Assembly (NCBI RefSeq): GCF_039954625.1
Contig: NZ_CP157199.1
Coordinates: forward strand, 3,100,001-3,164,000
Source: Pontimicrobium sp. SW4
GTDB lineage: Bacteria > Bacteroidota > Bacteroidia > Flavobacteriales > Flavobacteriaceae
Length of the DNA: 64,000 nucleotides
Reading direction: 5' to 3'
Below are positions 55,829-59,704 of this stretch, in pieces. Every line of letters begins with the position of its first letter. The first letter of the stretch is position 1. The notes under the pieces are model-generated. The model did no database searches. It was given only the letters and a program-made list of their open reading frames with translations, and was not told where the DNA came from. The translations under genes were made by a program, and so were the position numbers.

Positions 55829-56929
55829 TTATTTTCCAGAGAAAATCTCTTTCAATTGTGTTACAACACCTCCATTGCCAGAGATTGTGATTTCACCAAT
55901 TTTCTCAGCGATTTTTTCAACATACTCCATTTCTTTTAGCTTGTACAGCATGTTATTCTCTTCCATCAACTTTGCCGTATTTAGCAAGCTACGTGTTGAA
56001 GCTGTTTCTTCACGTCTTGTAATAGTATTAGCCTGAGCTTTTTTTTGTGCGACTAAAACTTGATTCATAATCTCTTTCATATCTCCAGTTAAAATCACAT
56101 CTCTAATACCACAGCTTAAAACATTAACACCTAATTTTGATGCACTTGCCTTAACATCTTCAAATACTGCTTCCGCAATATTTTCTTTACGCTCTAGCAA
56201 TTCATCTAATGTGTAAGCACCAATGTAAGCACGTAATACTAATTGCATAGCAATGTATAACTGCTTTTCATAATCCTTGTTTTCTAGTAAAGCTTTTTCA
56301 ATATCTGTTACTTTATACTGTGTGTAAAAGTTGATACGAATTGCAGCTTTATCTTTAGTTAACAATTCTTGACCAGCAATTTCTAATTGCAACTGACGTA
56401 AATCAGCTTTAGCAATTTTAATTGTAGTATCGTTTCTCCAGAATCTGTATGTACCTCCATCTAGAGTTTTTGTATACACATCATCAACTAAAAGCACAGC
56501 TTTTTCGTAAGCGGCGACCTCAAAAGTTCTGATGTATTTGCTCAATTCATAATTACTGAATAATGATTTGTCAATTTTTTCAGTAATATAAATTTTGCTC
56601 AAATCGGCACGCACAAATTCACGTTTAATCAAACCCTTCCAGTACACGTAACGTCCAGCTGTTAAAACGGTTTTGAAGTTTCTTTTTTCGTAAACTAAAA
56701 CTAGCTCACTGTCTTTAACTTCAATAATGTCTAACATTGCTTCCAACATTTCGTCTTTTAGTAAGAGTTCTAAAGCTATTGGAGCCACAAAGGTATTTGC
56801 AAGGTCATACACCAACACACGCTCATTAAAACCAAGCCAGTGCTTTCCTTGAGTAATTACTCTTTTGTAATCACCTTTTTTGAATACCAATCCTACTTTT
56901 CCCGCATTAATTCTTACTCGTTTCATCAT
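55829..56929 (-). CDS. SPFH/band-7 (slipin-like) protein with three N-terminal repeats
   Basis: 366 residues. Residues about 170-310 are an SPFH domain (TKDKAAIRINFYTQYKV, AYIGAYTLDELLERKENIAE, LGVNVLSCGIRDVILTGDM, QKKAQANTITRREETAS). Unlike usual slipins there is no N-terminal membrane segment. Instead about residues 1-170 hold three similar modules: KVGLVFKKGDYKRVITQGKHW, ELVLVYEKRNFKTVLTAGRY, KAVLLVDDVYTKTLDGGTY (first one trimmed by a residue to GLVFKKGDYKRVITQGKHW). SPFH proteins form oligomeric scaffolds, and slipins occur in RtcB RNA-repair operons elsewhere. Here it is the last gene after the tRNA-like array. Confidence 0.85.
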   Translation of the reverse strand: MMKRVRINAGKVGLVFKKGDYKRVITQGKHWLGFNERVLVYDLANTFVAPIALELLLKDEMLEAMLDIIEVKDSELVLVYEKRNFKTVLTAGRYVYWKGLIKREFVRADLSKIYITEKIDKSLFSNYELSKYIRTFEVAAYEKAVLLVDDVYTKTLDGGTYRFWRNDTTIKIAKADLRQLQLEIAGQELLTKDKAAIRINFYTQYKVTDIEKALLENKDYEKQLYIAMQLVLRAYIGAYTLDELLERKENIAEAVFEDVKASASKLGVNVLSCGIRDVILTGDMKEIMNQVLVAQKKAQANTITRREETASTRSLLNTAKLMEENNMLYKLKEMEYVEKIAEKIGEITISGNGGVVTQLKEIFSGK

Positions 56930-56959
56930 TTCTAAATTTTAAATTAAACAATCTAATTT

Positions 56960-57001
56960 GTCCACTATGGACGTGGCAAAACCTGTAACGGAAGGGTTGC
57001 C
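56960..57001 (-). promoter_or_regulatory. Structured leader of the SPFH gene
   Basis: Two neighbouring hairpins 30-70 bases before the SPFH start: GGCAA...TTGCC with inner CC/GG (56975-57001) and GTCCA-CTA-TGGAC (56960-56972). No known riboswitch was recognised. They could be processing sites between array and mRNA. Confidence 0.4.
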
Positions 57002-57369
57002 AACTTCAACTTGTAATGACTAGTTCATTATTAATTGAAGTATATTTTTCAAACTTTTTTCATCATTAAAATAGTAGAAAGCAAATCATCTTTCTGGTGC
57101 GGAAATACTCATATTAATAGTGTCTATAATTAGTGTTAAGTATTGTGACAACAATATGAATCGATATTCAGATTTATACAATTCTCTTAATACAAAGCAG
57201 TAAAAATGTCTGCTATTAAAAATCAGTATTTCAAGGCACTTTCAAGACTGCTTTTATTGAACACTAATGTTTTATTAAAGCCGACTTGCTATCCACTATT
57301 TCTGTCATTTTTTTATTGAGCAGTGTGACAAACTGCATTGGCCATCAGTTTTAAAAGATGATGAGCTTT
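57002..57369 (-). other. Eroded tail of the tRNA-like array
   Basis: No credible ORF. One further tRNA remnant is visible: an anticodon arm GCAGT-TTGTCAC-ACTGC (57336-57320) with an Asp anticodon GTC, but no T-arm follows it. A weaker stem AGCAG/CTGCT lies near 57196-57214. The rest is A+T-rich and unassigned. Confidence 0.4.
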
Positions 57370-57459
57370 TTCAACCTGCATTATGAGTGCAGTGCTCTAA
57401 CCAGACTGAGCTACGAGATCTAACTTTAGTGACCTCGACAGGAATCGAACCTGTGCTTG
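57370..57459 (-). tRNA. Circularly permuted tRNA-like unit, anticodon CAU
   Basis: On the transcript the 3' part comes first: T-arm ACAGG-TTCGATT-CCTGT and acceptor strand CGAGGTC with A (57454-57430). A 9-base spacer follows, then the 5' part: GATCTCG, TA, D-arm GCTC/GAGC with GG, anticodon arm CTGCA-CTCATAA-TGCAG (57420-57376). GATCTCG pairs with CGAGGTC over all 7 positions (one G-T). All stems are canonical, but the linear order is swapped. Alternative: a tandem duplicate that lost both outer halves. Confidence 0.6.
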
Positions 57460-57529
57460 TGGACACTTTACAGAATGTCAACTGTTCTCTAGAACCAAAA
57501 TCTAGCGCGTCTTCCGTTCCGCCATATCC
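57460..57529 (-). tRNA. tRNA-like unit: Leu-like body, TTG anticodon
   Basis: Acceptor GGATAT pairs with GTGTCC (two G-T pairs; seventh position mismatched), discriminator A. The D-arm (GGCGGAACGGAAGACGC) is Leu-like. The anticodon arm CTAGA-TTTTGGT-TCTAG reads TTG (57498-57496), which would decode Gln. The T-arm is eroded to ACAG-TTGACATT-CTGT and lacks TTCGA. Probably non-functional in translation. Confidence 0.5.
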
Positions 57530-57533
57530 TATA

Positions 57534-57595
57534 TAAGGACAGTGGGATTCGAACCCACACGAACTTGAGTTGATTTTTGGTAATCAACAAACCTT
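57534..57595 (-). tRNA. tRNA-like unit lacking the D-arm
   Basis: Acceptor strand AAGGTTT (57595-57589) leads directly into an anticodon-type hairpin GTTGATT-ACCAAA-AATCAAC (57588-57569); there is no D-arm. A perfect T-arm GTGGG-TTCGAAT-CCCAC and TGTCCTT (four terminal acceptor pairs) plus A close the unit. Total 62 nt. The anticodon is ambiguous because the loop has 6 or 8 bases (CCA, Trp-like, is one reading). Confidence 0.5.
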
Positions 57596-57600
57596 CAAGT

Positions 57601-57673
57601 CTAGTTGAACATAAGACGAAATACATCGCTGCATCGTATTATACAATAGTGCTATACCGAAACACCCAACAAG
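57601..57673 (-). tRNA. Degenerate tRNA-like unit, loop TATAATA
   Basis: 73 nt: acceptor CTTGTTG/CAACTAG pairs at 6 of 7 positions. A weak D-arm contains CGG. The anticodon stem TATTG/CGATG is paired using wobbles, with loop TATAATA, where the invariant U33 is A. The T-arm is not well formed. Identity unclear. Confidence 0.35.
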
Positions 57674-57692
57674 ACCGCTTGATACTTTAGTG

Positions 57693-57764
57693 TGGAACAG
57701 ATAGGATTCGAACCTATACTTCAAAGTCCGTAGCTTTGAGTGCTTTCCATTACACCATGAGTTT
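57693..57764 (-). tRNA. tRNA-Arg(ACG)-like unit with broken acceptor
   Basis: Anticodon arm CAAAG-CTACGGA-CTTTG (anticodon ACG, 57731-57729) and T-arm ATAGG-TTCGAAT-CCTAT are perfect. The two acceptor strands AAACTCA and CTGTTCC do not pair at all, so it cannot fold as a normal tRNA. Confidence 0.5.
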
Positions 57765-57769
57765 AATTG

Positions 57770-57843
57770 TACTCCACCCAAGATTCGAACTTGGACTTAA
57801 CAGCGCTTAAAACTGTTGCCTCTTCCAATTGGGCTAGTAGAGT
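57770..57843 (-). tRNA. tRNA-like unit, anticodon TAA, short variable loop
   Basis: Acceptor ACTCTAC/GTGGAGT pairs fully (one G-T), discriminator A. Anticodon arm ACAGT-TTTAAGC-GCTGT (TAA, 57809-57807); T-arm CCAAG-TTCGAAT-CTTGG. TAA means Leu, but the variable loop is only about 5 nt, whereas bacterial Leu tRNAs have a long one. The D-stem is weak. Confidence 0.55.
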
Positions 57844-57849
57844 ATTAGT

Positions 57850-57920
57850 ACAGGAAGAGAGATTCGAACTCCCAGTTTCTCGATTCTAAGTCGAGTGCGT
57901 TTACCGTTTCGCCATTCCTG
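57850..57920 (-). tRNA. tRNA-Leu(TAG)-like unit, short variable loop
   Basis: Acceptor CAGGAAT/CTTCCTG has 6 of 7 pairs. The D-arm GGCGAAACGGTAAACGC is Leu-type, anticodon arm CTCGA-CTTAGAA-TCGAG (TAG, 57888-57886) is perfect, T-arm GGGAG-TTCGAAT-CTCTC. The long Leu variable arm is replaced by AAACT. The discriminator is T instead of the A needed by LeuRS. Confidence 0.55.
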
Positions 57921-57926
57921 CATTTG

Positions 57927-57999
57927 TTGAGATATTAGGAATCGAACCTAAACCCCTCGCCTTATGAGAGCGATGCTCTACCTATTAAGCTATATCTCA
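57927..57999 (-). tRNA. tRNA-like unit, anticodon CAU (Met/Ile2-like)
   Basis: Acceptor TGAGATA/TATCTCA pairs fully but begins with T1-A72, which is unusual; discriminator A. D-arm GCTT/GAGC, anticodon arm TCGCT-CTCATAA-GGCGA (CAT, 57966-57964), T-arm TTAGG-TTCGATT-CCTAA. Well-formed cloverleaf, no CCA. Confidence 0.6.
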
Positions 58000-58004
58000 T
58001 TTTG

Positions 58005-58076
58005 TACTCTATAAGGGAATCGAACCCTTGTCTTCTGGGAGAAAACCAGATGCACTAACCACTATGCTAATAGAGC
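58005..58076 (-). tRNA. tRNA-Glu(TTC)-like unit
   Basis: Acceptor GCTCTAT/ATAGAGT (G1-T72 wobble), discriminator A, D-arm GCAT/GTGC with GG, anticodon arm TCTGG-TTTTCTC-CCAGA (TTC, 58043-58041), T-arm AAGGG-TTCGATT-CCCTT. Well formed. Genuine bacterial tRNA-Glu usually has G1-C72 and discriminator G. Confidence 0.6.
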
Positions 58077-58084
58077 AGCTTTGT

Positions 58085-58154
58085 CTGAGAAGCAGGATTC
58101 GAACCTACAACCTTTCACTTCCAAAGCGAGTAAACAACCATCGTTATCTTCTCA
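58085..58154 (-). tRNA. tRNA-Pro(TGG)-like unit
   Basis: Acceptor TGAGAAG/CTTCTCA pairs fully. Anticodon arm CTCGC-TTTGGAA-GTGAA (TGG, 58123-58121) has one mismatch and one wobble; T-arm GTAGG-TTCGAAT-CCTGC. The D-arm is very short and weak (AAC-GATG-GTT). Confidence 0.5.
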
Positions 58155-58159
58155 GTTTT

Positions 58160-58219
58160 GCAGTACCGACGAGACTCCCTTCGACTGCGCTCAGGGTAAA
58201 CTTCTCATCTCTTGAACTG
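58160..58219 (-). pseudogene. Collapsed tRNA-Asp-like duplicate interrupted by a REP-like element
   Basis: 58160-58176 copies 58224-58240 of the Asp unit with two changes, and 58199-58206 copies its variable-loop side. The T-loop between them is replaced by a 20-bp palindromic element, and the D- and anticodon arms are mostly deleted. A decayed partial duplicate of the neighbouring unit. Confidence 0.6.
58177..58196. repeat. REP-like palindromic element
   Basis: CCCTTCGACTGCGCTCAGGG has complementary ends (CCCT/AGGG) and matches a short element I recognise as widely scattered in Bacteroidota intergenic DNA. It lies exactly in the T-loop position of the collapsed Asp-like copy. Confidence 0.65.
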
Positions 58220-58224
58220 CTTAG

Positions 58225-58297
58225 CAGTATCGACGAGATTCGAACTCGCAACTTCTCGGGAGACAACCGAGCGCTCTAGCCATTGAACTACGATACT
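58225..58297 (-). tRNA. tRNA-Asp(GTC)-like unit
   Basis: Acceptor AGTATCG/CGATACT perfect, discriminator G as AspRS requires. D-arm GTTC/GAGC, anticodon arm CTCGG-TTGTCTC-CCGAG (GTC, 58264-58262), T-arm GCGAG-TTCGAAT-CTCGT. Best-formed linear unit. A1-T72 is atypical, and position 37 is T rather than a purine. Confidence 0.65.
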
Positions 58298-58302
58298 GTT
58301 TG

Positions 58303-58386
58303 TGGGAACTGAAAGATTCGAACTTTCTTAGCATTTAAGCAACAGGTTTACAATCTGCACCAACTCTCCAACGTTGACGAGTTCCC
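58303..58386 (-). tRNA. tRNA-Tyr(GTA)-like unit
   Basis: First unit on the transcript. Acceptor GGGAACT/AGTTCCC perfect, discriminator A. Anticodon arm GCAGA-TTGTAAA-CCTGT (GTA, 58351-58349) has a mismatch next to the loop. A 14-nt variable region fits the class II Tyr type. T-arm GAAAG-TTCGAAT-CTTTC. No encoded CCA. Confidence 0.6.
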
Positions 58387-58431: not shown

Positions 58432-59013
58432 TTATAATAAATTATTTAACCGATTTCGGAACCAGCTTGTCTCTGGTTTGTCTACAGTTTCAGTTTTTTT
58501 GTTTTCGGCCTCTCGATTTATTTTATTTAAAACTTTTCGCTTTTTATTAACTCGAGAAATCACTTCATCAACATAATTAATAAAGTCATTATTCATACCT
58601 AAAAGCTTTGCATCATTTAAGGCTTTGTCGGCCTTATCTAACTCTAAATTAGCTTCAAACAAGCTTGCTTGAGTTAGTTCTATTCCAGCCTTATCAATTC
58701 CTTTTACTTGTCTCGCAAATTCAATTAATTTTTGAGCTTCTTCATAATCTTCATTATTTATTAAAAGTCTTATATAGTCTGGATACACATCAGGAATATC
58801 TAAACGACTCATCAAAGCTTTTTCGTAAAACTCTTTTGCTAACTCATAATCACCTAATTGTTCATTTTGTATTCTTGCCATTAAGCAAAGCGCTTTAACA
58901 CTTTTTGGATTGTATGATAGTGCATAGTTTAGTGCTTCTATCGCTTTTTCCAATTCATAAGGATATGCTTCAATGGCTCGGAATAAATAGTTGTTATATA
59001 AATTATTTTCCAT
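58432..59013 (-). CDS. TPR-repeat protein upstream of the tRNA-like array
   Basis: 193 residues, cytoplasmic. Helical tetratricopeptide-type repeats run from residue about 10 to 150 (ELEKAIEALNYALSYNPKSV, YELAKEFYEKALMSR, DYEEAQKLIEFARQ, LELDKADKALNDAKLLG). A basic linker (VNKKRKVLNKINREAENKKT) and a short amphipathic end (WFRNRLNNLL) follow. Such proteins mediate protein-protein contacts. It is the first coding gene after the attenuator and reads into the tRNA-like array and the SPFH gene. No closer family is recognised. Confidence 0.8.
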   Translation of the reverse strand: MENNLYNNYLFRAIEAYPYELEKAIEALNYALSYNPKSVKALCLMARIQNEQLGDYELAKEFYEKALMSRLDIPDVYPDYIRLLINNEDYEEAQKLIEFARQVKGIDKAGIELTQASLFEANLELDKADKALNDAKLLGMNNDFINYVDEVISRVNKKRKVLNKINREAENKKTETVDKPETSWFRNRLNNLL

Positions 59014-59105: not shown

Positions 59106-59143
59106 GAATAAAAAAATCCGAAACAGTTTGTTTGCTTCGGATT
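59106..59143 (-). terminator. Attenuator terminator in the leader of the TPR operon
   Basis: On the minus strand stem AATCCGAA/TTCGGATT (59143-59136 with 59122-59115), then TTTTTTTATT. It starts 18 bases after the stop of the leader ORF. Its 5' arm CCGAAGC can instead pair with GCTTCGG (59178-59172 region) inside the leader ORF, giving an antiterminator. Confidence 0.8.
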
Positions 59144-59160
59144 CTTTTCTGGAAAGTTAT

Positions 59161-59238
59161 CTACAGAAAATACCGAAGCCTTGTAAATGACTCGAGGTCA
59201 TAACTTAAAGGTTGTAATGCTATCATATATCTTAGCAT
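59161..59238 (-). CDS. Leader peptide of the TPR/tRNA-like operon
   Basis: 25 codons, starting MLRYMIALQP and ending TRLRYFL. Six Leu codons use five different triplets (CTA, TTA twice, CTC, CTT, CTG) and three Arg codons are AGA, AGG and CGG; several should be rare in so A+T-rich a genome. GAAGCC just before the ATG can pair with GGCTTC (59180-59175) near the end of the ORF, and GCTTCGG there can pair with the terminator arm. A ribosome at the stop codon would cover that segment and allow termination; one stalled early would free it. Confidence 0.6.
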   Translation of the reverse strand: MLRYMIALQPLSYDLESFTRLRYFL

Positions 59239-59295
59239 GGCTTCTTGTTTTTAATTATTAATATTTTTTTGCAATAGTTATTTAAAACTGCGATG

Positions 59296-59326
59296 CAAAG
59301 ATGAAAACTATTTTTAAAAAAACAAA
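59296..59326 (-). promoter_or_regulatory. Promoter of the TPR/tRNA-like/SPFH operon
   Basis: On the minus strand TTTG (59326-59323), a 19-base spacer and CATCTTTG (59303-59296; one mismatch to TAnnTTTG). Start of RNA expected near 59289, about 50 bases before the leader ATG. Confidence 0.55.
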
Positions 59327-59510
59327 TAAAATTTTAATTTAATTTACTGAAAATCAATTAGTTATGTTTAAAATTAAACAAAGGAATTCCTGTCCGTTTT
59401 TTAACGGATACTTGAGTTTGTGTGCAAGTGTTTGTCTCCCAGTTGCTTACTCTTCAATGCTTAATATTTTAGTTTTTAAAAGTTATTTTCAAATTCTTTG
59501 ATTTTTTTCA

Positions 59511-59538
59511 TAAAAAAAGCGTCCAATTTCTTGGACGC
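59511..59538 (-). terminator. Strong intrinsic terminator
   Basis: Stem GCGTCCAA/TTGGACGC (59538-59531 with 59526-59519), loop of 4, minus-strand tail TTTTTTT. It ends either the AhpD-like gene transcript or a short RNA starting near 59700. Confidence 0.9.
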
Positions 59539-59578
59539 TCGTACTATTTATAGTTTTTGTGTTTAAATCATCTCTTAT

Positions 59579-59632
59579 TTAATGATTAAAAATAGATACA
59601 TAACGTCCTTGTCGTAGAAATAATTCATTCAT
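59579..59632 (-). CDS. Possible 17-codon mini-ORF in a short transcript
   Basis: Peptide MNELFLRQGRYVSIFNH. Within it GGACGTT (59608-59602) can pair with AGCGTCC (59539-59533) of the terminator arm (7 bp, one G-T), and a perfect hairpin CACTG/CAGTG lies upstream (59663-59646 region). The stop is 40 bases from the terminator stem, so the geometry is less convincing than in the next leader. Confidence 0.3.
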   Translation of the reverse strand: MNELFLRQGRYVSIFNH

Positions 59633-59704
59633 TCCTCGATAATCCCACTGGCAAAACAGTGATTTTGGTGCAATATGTACTATTGTGTTTTTCAATTCTA
59701 GCTG

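What the first reader, a model, noticed from the sequence alone, without database searches (positions are those of the whole stretch)
57370..58386. Compact array of about twelve divergent tRNA-like units
Seen: the minus strand carries successive units with Tyr, Asp, (Asp remnant), Pro, Glu, CAU, Leu(TAG), TAA, Arg(ACG), an unclear unit, a D-arm-less unit, a Leu-body/TTG unit and a permuted CAU unit. Gaps in the best part are 3-8 nt. None encodes CCA. Most T-loops keep TTCGAAT or TTCGATT, while acceptor, D- and variable arms are often eroded. Units start with unusual pairs (A1-T72, T1-A72, G1-T72). The two single tRNA genes at 2989 and 35871 are fully canonical, so decay here is local. This does not look like an ordinary tRNA operon; T-arms seem kept while tRNA identity elements are not. 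Inference: RNA mimics or decoys rather than translation tRNAs.
Basis: partly seen in the sequence, partly recalled or inferred. Interest (0 to 1): 0.93.

Follow-up and report, generated by a model that had tools for sequence, protein, structure and literature searches.

The report
Spare tRNA set in RNA-repair locus
Next to a gene for a scaffold-type (SPFH) protein, this bacterium carries a row of altered spare tRNA genes and a large RNA that imitates tRNAs, behind two leader switches that look built to sense stalled protein synthesis; many related bacteria carry the same locus together with RNA-repair enzymes.

Summary
The array is real, but it is two things. (1) 58386-57693 (-) is a row of tRNA genes redundant with the chromosomal set. 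In relatives the row holds up to 18 genes in partly conserved order, with isotype-correct discriminator bases in most families; nine isoacceptors carry an array-specific base at position 37, beside the anticodon. This points to translation-competent spare tRNAs, damaged here by one insertion and one deletion, rather than decoys. Of 299 Flavobacteriaceae genomes, 27 have both this RNA and the SPFH gene, 2 only the gene, 1 only the RNA. Many relatives hold RtcB, PrfH-like, WYL or TROVE genes in the locus. Upstream lie two short leader ORFs whose ends can pair with the arm of a following terminator: a predicted ribosome-stalling switch. Best reading: a translation-damage response releasing altered tRNAs plus an SPFH/tRNA-mimic particle. 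Expression, charging and nuclease resistance are untested.

The parts
59579..59695 (-). leader ORF 1 (beta type), read from a TTG that lines up with the ATG of G002: 38 aa, MKNTIVHIAPKSLFCQWDYRGMNELFLRQGRYVSIFNH (an in-frame TTG further upstream would give 50 aa)
   Evidence: beta leaders precede arrays in other genera. This leader did not pass the strict criterion
59512..59540 (-). terminator hairpin 1 (GCGTCC/GGACGC + T run); GGACGT near the end of leader ORF 1 (within 59597-59610) pairs with its 5' arm in the alternative fold
59161..59238 (-). leader ORF 2 (alpha type), 25 aa, MLRYMIALQPLSYDLESFTRLRYFL; its 3' end (59161-59180) is the 5' half of the antiterminator
   Evidence: 301-nt leader region 97% identical in L031, 92% in L032
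59110..59151 (-). 3' half of antiterminator 2 (59134-59151) overlapping terminator hairpin 2 (59110-59145)
58432..59013 (-). TPR protein, 193 aa (a member of this cluster in 53 of 84 related loci)
58303..58386 (-). tRNA-Tyr(GTA)-like unit with long variable arm
   Evidence: sequence, position; not called by ARAGORN or Rfam here
58224..58297 (-). tRNA-Asp(GTC), U37
58157..58223 (-). displaced Asp 3' end and inserted REP-like hairpin (58171-58200)
   Evidence: alignment with L031
58084..58155 (-). tRNA-Pro(TGG), weak here (28.8 bits), called by ARAGORN in G002
58004..58076 (-). tRNA-Glu(TTC)
57926..57999 (-). tRNA with CAU anticodon (Met or Ile2, not resolved)
57848..57921 (-). tRNA-Leu(TAG) with short variable loop
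57769..57843 (-). tRNA-Leu(TAA) with short variable loop, G37
57693..57763 (-). Arg(ACG)/Phe deletion chimera (Gln gene lost)
   Evidence: by inspection
56930..57688 (-). non-coding RNA: 5' multibranch domain, T-arm 1 (57542-57558), acceptor 1 (57525-57541), D-arm 1 (57507-57523), anticodon-like arm (57489-57506), T-arm 2 (57438-57454), acceptor 2 (57414-57437), D-arm 2 (57394-57411), anticodon-like arm (57376-57392), then further conserved blocks up to the SPFH gene; covariation tested only for 57337-57688, exact ends unknown
55829..56929 (-). SPFH/Band_7 (slipin-type) protein, 366 aa; the model shows N-terminal 5-strand beta repeats before the SPFH domain and no N-terminal membrane helix

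Best explanation
The locus is a stress-released translation-rescue cassette. Shown by comparison: leader ORFs whose ends can pair with the arm of a following terminator; an old family of redundant tRNA genes with mostly isotype-correct identity elements and array-specific bases at position 37; and a conserved RNA with two permuted tRNA-like modules tied to the SPFH gene. Inferred: when ribosomes slow down in the leader because some charged tRNA is lost (for instance cut by an anticodon nuclease) or translation is blocked, the antiterminator forms and transcription runs into TPR, tRNA array, ncRNA and SPFH. The array tRNAs, altered in the anticodon loop, replace tRNAs that the attacker has cut. 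The SPFH protein and the tRNA-mimic RNA form a particle that handles or shields damaged tRNA, in relatives together with RtcB, PrfH-like protein or Ro60.
For: Leaders: terminator plus an antiterminator of 6 or more bases overlapping the ORF in 52 of 85 loci. Synonymous single changes exceed the no-constraint expectation in all five leader groups (73 vs 39.6 of 195; 218 vs 130.5 of 634; 52 vs 44.5 of 211; 91 vs 43.7 of 185; 36 vs 23.2 of 100). For the 7 leaders of the window, L046 and L060, RNAfold gives the terminator on one stretch and the antiterminator on the other. Leaders use more kinds of amino acid than random peptides (z 3.6, 8.3, 4.1 on 21, 23, 13 non-redundant leaders). tRNAs: discriminators and U33 kept; median identity 0.71-0.89 among arrays against 0.54-0.71 to the chromosomal isoacceptor (16 isoacceptors, up to 25 sequences each); position 37 differs from the chromosomal base, the same in the three genomes examined, in Asp, Glu, Pro, Gln, His, Leu-TAG, Leu-TAA, Phe and Arg-ACG. 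ncRNA: 48 of 70 pairs with double-sided changes; 514 cells against 138.8 +/- 10.9 shuffled and 59-94 slid. Co-occurrence with SPFH: 27 both, 2 and 1 alone, 269 neither. RtcB in 16 of these 27 genomes against 19 of 272 others. Locus neighbours RtcB, RF-1 domain (PrfH-like), WYL, TROVE, Tpt1, RlaP. In Anabaena, TrcR represses a 26-gene tRNA operon, rtcB and a slipin gene, and translation-targeting antibiotics relieve repression (PMC10272220).
Against: No expression, charging or cleavage data. About half of the isoacceptors do not change at position 37: Lys, Tyr-GTA, Cys, Ser, Trp, Asn, Val, Met, Ile-GAT and Arg-TCT, so resistance cannot be general through this base. Antiterminator-side energies lie well below mononucleotide shuffles for some leaders (window alpha -22.1 against -10.4 +/- 3.0) but within about 1 sd for L046 beta and L060 alpha; third codon positions are not the most variable in the gamma/delta and Aquimarina beta leaders; leader pairs are not independent. 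Leader 1 of the window fails the strict criterion. Leader enrichment and array content correlate weakly or not at all (Spearman 0.45, p 0.047 for alpha; 0.31, p 0.19 for beta plus gamma/delta); Asp and Glu, common in arrays, are depleted in leaders. The own genome has no RtcB and no TROVE. The array is eroding here; in the genus the SPFH gene is truncated in G003, and G001 and G004 gave only weak hits. Gln arrays often have U73 and Leu units lack the long arm.
Confidence: 0.57

Rival explanations
1. The array units are baits: they are made to be bound or cut by tRNA-targeting nucleases or to occupy the SPFH particle, and do not take part in translation.
For: The neighbouring ncRNA is a tRNA mimic. 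Leu units lack the long variable arm and Gln often lacks A73. For YrlA, Hughes et al. name competitive inhibition of the anticodon nuclease as one possibility (PMC7790460, passages).
Against: Isotype-specific discriminators are kept across many genera, which a bait would not need. Array and chromosome differ right beside the anticodon in nine isoacceptors, opposite to what a bait for the same nuclease would need.
Confidence: 0.15
2. The array is a relic of a phage or plasmid tRNA cluster captured at the locus, now in decay, without present function.
For: Two lesions in this window; patchy presence (29 of 299 genomes have the SPFH gene); some array tRNAs match phage DNA, e.g. Leu-TAG with Vibrio phage VspSw_1 at 82.7% over 80 nt (15 phage records in all).
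Against: Partly conserved order and up to 18 genes in many genera, conserved identity elements, and structure or coding conservation in ncRNA and leaders. The ncRNA (57337-57690) has no blastn match at E 1e-5 in 50,697 phage records.
Confidence: 0.12
3. The spare tRNAs serve general translation stress (antibiotics, cold, amino-acid limitation) and have nothing to do with tRNA cleavage; position-37 bases only reflect long separate evolution or freedom from TrmD or MiaA modification.
For: The Anabaena trn operon responds to antibiotics that hit the ribosome (PMC10272220). The five changed isoacceptors with G36 (Pro, Leu-TAG, Gln, His, Arg-ACG) all go from G37 to A37, as expected if m1G37 (recalled) is avoided; Arg-TCG keeps G37 in 4 of 5 calls, some of them on the ncRNA.
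Against: Association with RtcB, PrfH-like, TROVE and Tpt1 genes, whose families act on damaged or special RNA (recalled).
Confidence: 0.3

Closest known systems
trn operon of Anabaena sp. PCC 7120 under TrcR (PMC10272220; abstract and passages seen)
   Same: a long array of extra tRNA genes, silent until translation is stressed; a slipin gene (alr0740, 42-fold up without TrcR) and rtcB are in the same regulon
   Different: 26 genes on a megaplasmid controlled by an RHH repressor; here fewer genes lie beside the SPFH gene, with leader switches and the ncRNA; whether Anabaena array tRNAs differ at position 37 was not tested
YrlA / bacterial Y RNA (Rfam RF02553; rsr-yrlBA-rtcBA operon, PMC7790460 passages)
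   Same: circularly permuted tRNA-like module (Y RNA 6CU1 superposes on tRNA by circular permutation: PMC11472068 passages) in RNA-repair loci
   Different: two modules in tandem behind a conserved 5' domain; matches of 26-43 bits stay under Rfam's gathering score of 69; partner is an SPFH protein, with TROVE in only 4 of 84 loci
SPFH/Band-7 modules with 'a novel tRNA-like molecule' in RNA-repair systems (Burroughs and Aravind 2016; abstract recalled, text not held)
   Same: probably the same SPFH-ncRNA pairing
   Different: I could not check whether that paper describes the permuted double module, the tRNA array or the leaders
phage tRNAs with anticodon-loop mutations (PMC10264068, passages)
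   Same: tRNA sets differing from host tRNAs in the anticodon loop, proposed to resist anticodon nucleases
   Different: bacterial chromosomal locus, kept across genera
leader-peptide transcription attenuators (trp type; recalled)
   Same: short ORF whose end overlaps the antiterminator
   Different: leaders hold on average 14-17 different amino acids instead of repeating one, and often sit in tandem

Membership tests
redundant tRNA gene array (Anabaena trn type) | cluster of tRNA genes duplicating chromosomal isoacceptors | tested here: met
redundant tRNA gene array (Anabaena trn type) | silent and induced by translation stress | not testable with these tools
   no expression data
Y RNA (YrlA) | circularly permuted tRNA-like module | tested here: met
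Y RNA (YrlA) | reaches the Rfam gathering score of RF02553 | tested here: not met
   28.2 bits here, 26.1-43.2 in five other loci, cut-off 69
Y RNA (YrlA) | Ro60/TROVE partner | tested here: not met
   none in the own genome; a TROVE cluster in 4 of 84 loci
leader-peptide attenuator | translated leader ORF | tested here: inconclusive
   synonymous excess in five groups and conserved length, but no third-position excess in two of them; sequence only
leader-peptide attenuator | alternative antiterminator and terminator folds, antiterminator overlapping the ORF | tested here: met
   leader 2 by the strict criterion and by folding; leader 1 by folding only
leader-peptide attenuator | read-through depends on ribosome stalling | not testable with these tools
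   needs a reporter assay
RtcB RNA-repair operon | RtcB present | tested here: not met
   none in this genome; an RtcB cluster in 43 of 84 related loci
SPFH/Band_7 protein | Band_7 domain over Pfam cut-off | tested here: met
   103.7 against 23.6 bits
vault particle (MVP) | tandem beta repeats before an SPFH domain, particle formation | tested here: inconclusive

The most novel reading that the evidence does not exclude
A general tRNA-loss sensor and spare-parts kit: tandem leader peptides that sample nearly every amino acid register the loss of many tRNAs, and release a set of anticodon-loop-altered, cleavage-resistant tRNAs together with an SPFH particle built on a double, permuted tRNA-mimic RNA (a bacterial counterpart of vault or Ro particles).
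Probability: 0.33. Interest if true: 0.94.

Novelty: new variant of a known kind. Interest (0 to 1): 0.82.

Why it matters
Phage tRNA sets have been proposed to escape anticodon nucleases (PMC10264068); a bacterial counterpart kept across genera beside RNA-repair genes would show that hosts hold spare, altered tRNAs too. Leader peptides that sample most amino acids would be a sensor of tRNA loss as such, not of one amino acid. The tandem permuted tRNA mimic gives a concrete RNA partner for an SPFH protein, whose role in RNA repair is open. All of it is testable in culturable Flavobacteriaceae.

Tried and rejected
Rfam ROOL/GOLLD-like large RNA (recalled idea): no such match in the e-value scans. 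tmRNA: only weak matches in L046, L049 and L060 (14.5-18.6 bits, cut-off 47), rejected. Phage origin of the ncRNA: no match. PADLOC: no model for the SPFH, TPR, RtcB or PrfH-like protein; the WYL protein matched WYL models, Cas3c and weakly DpdJ. A specific amino-acid code linking leader and array: weak or not significant; in 35 loci 2 of 342 array amino-acid types were missing from the leaders, 13.3 expected if unrelated, 6.5 +/- 1.9 when leaders are reassigned among loci (50 of 5000 at or below 2), without correction for kinship; so not claimed. A vault identity: inconclusive. Citrobacter slipin locus (L207): Rfam found nothing upstream and the fold was not better than shuffles (z -0.91); only a T-arm-like stretch is seen by eye.

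Rows dropped: five leader ORFs judged false and the window's beta ORF trimmed before the counts. Array tRNAs were counted only if ARAGORN called them on the + strand upstream of the SPFH gene (L094 also downstream); the 462 include a few calls that sit on the ncRNA (e.g. Ser-AGA, some Arg-TCG and Tyr-ATA). The three 299-genome searches are taken as the same set from their handles; one search used stricter filters.

Literature (open-licence library only, ten searches). Slipin with tRNA-like, RtcB and operon: 0 papers. RtcB with slipin and tRNA: 2. Leader peptide with attenuation and RtcB: 1, on an efflux pump, listing only. Three or more of SPFH, RtcB, RNA repair, tRNA-like, slipin, stomatin: 25, of which 10 listed. 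So it is not shown that the leaders and the position-37 pattern are absent from print.
Full report
Observation. The interval carries a minus-strand row of tRNA genes: six by ARAGORN and Rfam, a Pro gene just under Rfam's cut-off, and a Tyr-like unit seen in the sequence. The chromosome holds its own copies of the array isoacceptors. Lack of CCA is normal here: 2 of 37 chromosomal tRNAs encode it.

Kin. The gene downstream (55829-56929) is a Band_7/SPFH protein. Among 60 related genomes five others held a match over 350 bits: two same-genus orthologues (G002 98%, G005 92%), one truncated (G003), and two from other families of the order (G039 60%, G048 51%). With the window and L031-L034 this makes 85 loci. 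In 37 of 85 ARAGORN calls five or more tRNAs upstream of the SPFH gene, in partly conserved order; among these 37 arrays Ala, Gly and Thr tRNAs are rare (0.03, 0.08, 0.05 of arrays). BLASTP clusters over 84 loci (without the window) gave TPR 53, RtcB 43, PrfH-like 20, WYL 19, TROVE 4, Tpt1 4; families were checked by Pfam on one representative each (TPR on the window protein). In G048 the SPFH gene is followed by a T4-type RNA ligase. So in many relatives the array sits in an RNA-repair locus. The window's own genome lacks RtcB and TROVE.

The tRNAs. Over 462 ARAGORN calls the discriminator base fits the chromosomal isotype in most families, U33 is kept in nearly all, and the D-loop holds GG in nearly all (Lys 21 of 27). 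Exceptions: Gln U73 in 20 of 31, Arg-ACG mixed, Leu without the long arm. Array tRNAs resemble each other across loci (median identity 0.71-0.89) more than the chromosomal isoacceptor (0.54-0.71), least clearly for Tyr (0.71 against 0.68). Position 37 differs from the chromosomal base, the same in the three genomes examined, in nine isoacceptors: Asp U 36/37, Glu U 30/30, Pro A 19/19, Gln A 30/31, His A 22/24, Leu-TAG A 30/32, Arg-ACG A 20/24, Phe G 26/32, Leu-TAA G 14/20; it does not differ in Lys, Tyr-GTA, Cys, Ser, Trp, Asn, Val, Met, Ile-GAT and Arg-TCT. I read this as a maintained set of translation tRNAs with partly altered anticodon loops. That the change gives resistance to nucleases is inference, by analogy with phage tRNAs (PMC10264068, passages). 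In this window two lesions are visible against G002: a 64-nt insertion in Asp, and an Arg/Phe fusion with loss of Gln.

The non-coding RNA. A block of conserved sequence begins at 57688 and runs to the SPFH gene; its 5' motif was found in 73 of 85 loci (up to 4 mismatches in 18 bases), also where no array exists (e.g. L057, L065, L079). On 43 sequences RNAalifold predicts 73 pairs, 49 with compensatory double changes. For 70 of these pairs (three long-range ones left out) 48 have double changes; 514 cells against 138.8 +/- 10.9 in shuffles (0 of 500) and 59 to 94 when slid; 97.2% of cells pair against 38-44% slid. The order T-arm, acceptor 3' strand, loop, acceptor 5' strand, two bases (UA in many), D-arm, in the second module also an anticodon-like arm, is a circularly permuted tRNA, twice in tandem. 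YrlA (RF02553) matches these modules in the window (28.2 bits, E 0.0028) and in 5 of 5 other loci, best 43.2 bits and E 2.9e-6, L085 only E 0.056, all under the gathering score of 69. Bacterial Y RNA is known to superpose on tRNA by circular permutation (PMC11472068, passages). A model of the first 153 positions (R1) was searched in 299 Flavobacteriaceae genomes: 28 hits at E 1e-5; the SPFH profile gave 29 at E 1e-60; 27 have both, their 5' ends 628-936 nt apart (median 744). SPFH alone: G003 (truncated) and G061. RNA alone: G064, where RtcB follows it. RtcB (E 1e-40) is in 16 of the 27 against 19 of 272 others.

The leaders. Two short ORFs precede the TPR gene: 59579-59695 (TTG start here) and 59161-59238. 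Each ends in a sequence that can pair with the 5' arm of the following terminator; RNAfold gives both alternatives for the 7 leaders tested in three loci, with energies well below mononucleotide shuffles for some and within about 1 sd for L046 beta and L060 alpha. Strict automatic criteria find such leaders in 52 of 85 loci (leader 2 but not leader 1 of the window), looser motif criteria in 64 of 85 before five false ORFs were dropped. Synonymous changes exceed expectation in all five groups tested, only slightly in Aquimarina beta (52 against 44.5), and third positions are not the most variable in two groups; pairs are not independent. Leaders contain more kinds of amino acid than random peptides (beta 17.2 against 14.8, gamma/delta 17.4 against 15.8, alpha 14.2 against 13.0); beta and gamma/delta leaders are rich in Cys, Arg, Ser, His, Trp and Tyr and poor in Ala and Val. 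The expected link between leader and array composition is weak.

Mechanism. Most likely the locus answers blocked or damaged translation: stalled ribosomes in the leaders allow read-through, which supplies spare tRNAs and an SPFH/tRNA-mimic particle. Steps shown are sequence and structure conservation, alternative folds and association; steps inferred are translation of the leaders, induction, charging, resistance and particle formation. The nearest experimental support is Anabaena, where a tRNA operon, rtcB and slipin share one repressor and respond to ribosome-targeting antibiotics (PMC10272220, passages).

Noticed in passing
59300-59510 (-): Conserved block between terminator 1 and leader 2 (with a TCCG...CGGA hairpin) shared with L031 and L039 by eye; function unknown. 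A Flavobacteria-type -7 box (consensus recalled) lies at 59295-59303.
   Followed up: no
59510-59616 (-): Sub-threshold Rfam match to the phenylalanine leader (23.3 bits, cut-off 55, E 0.8) over leader 1 and its terminator; chance level.
   Followed up: no
G064:C4:164022-164178: The ncRNA without an SPFH hit, RtcB gene starting about 480 nt downstream.
   Followed up: no
L207 3966-7919: Citrobacter plasmid locus rtcR - slipin - RlaP; the gap before slipin holds a T-arm-like stretch followed by a possible acceptor hairpin, by eye.
   Followed up: partly
L093 9812-9930: tRNA-like (33.1 bits) and YrlA-like (37.9 bits) matches downstream of the TROVE gene in an uncultured Kordia, a possible separate Y RNA.
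   Followed up: no
L046 5780-5882: Flavo-1 RNA (RF01705, 54.3 bits, over cut-off 42) inside the region between the permuted modules and the SPFH gene.
   Followed up: no
57845-57924 (-): Array Leu(TAG) is 82.7% identical over 80 nt to a stretch of Vibrio phage VspSw_1; an origin of array tRNAs from phages is open.
   Followed up: no
L048, L050, L051, L063, L077, inside the array: In five Aquimarina loci an unrelated gene (cluster C20, transporter-like by eye) lies on the other strand between the main tRNA group and His/Phe.
   Followed up: no
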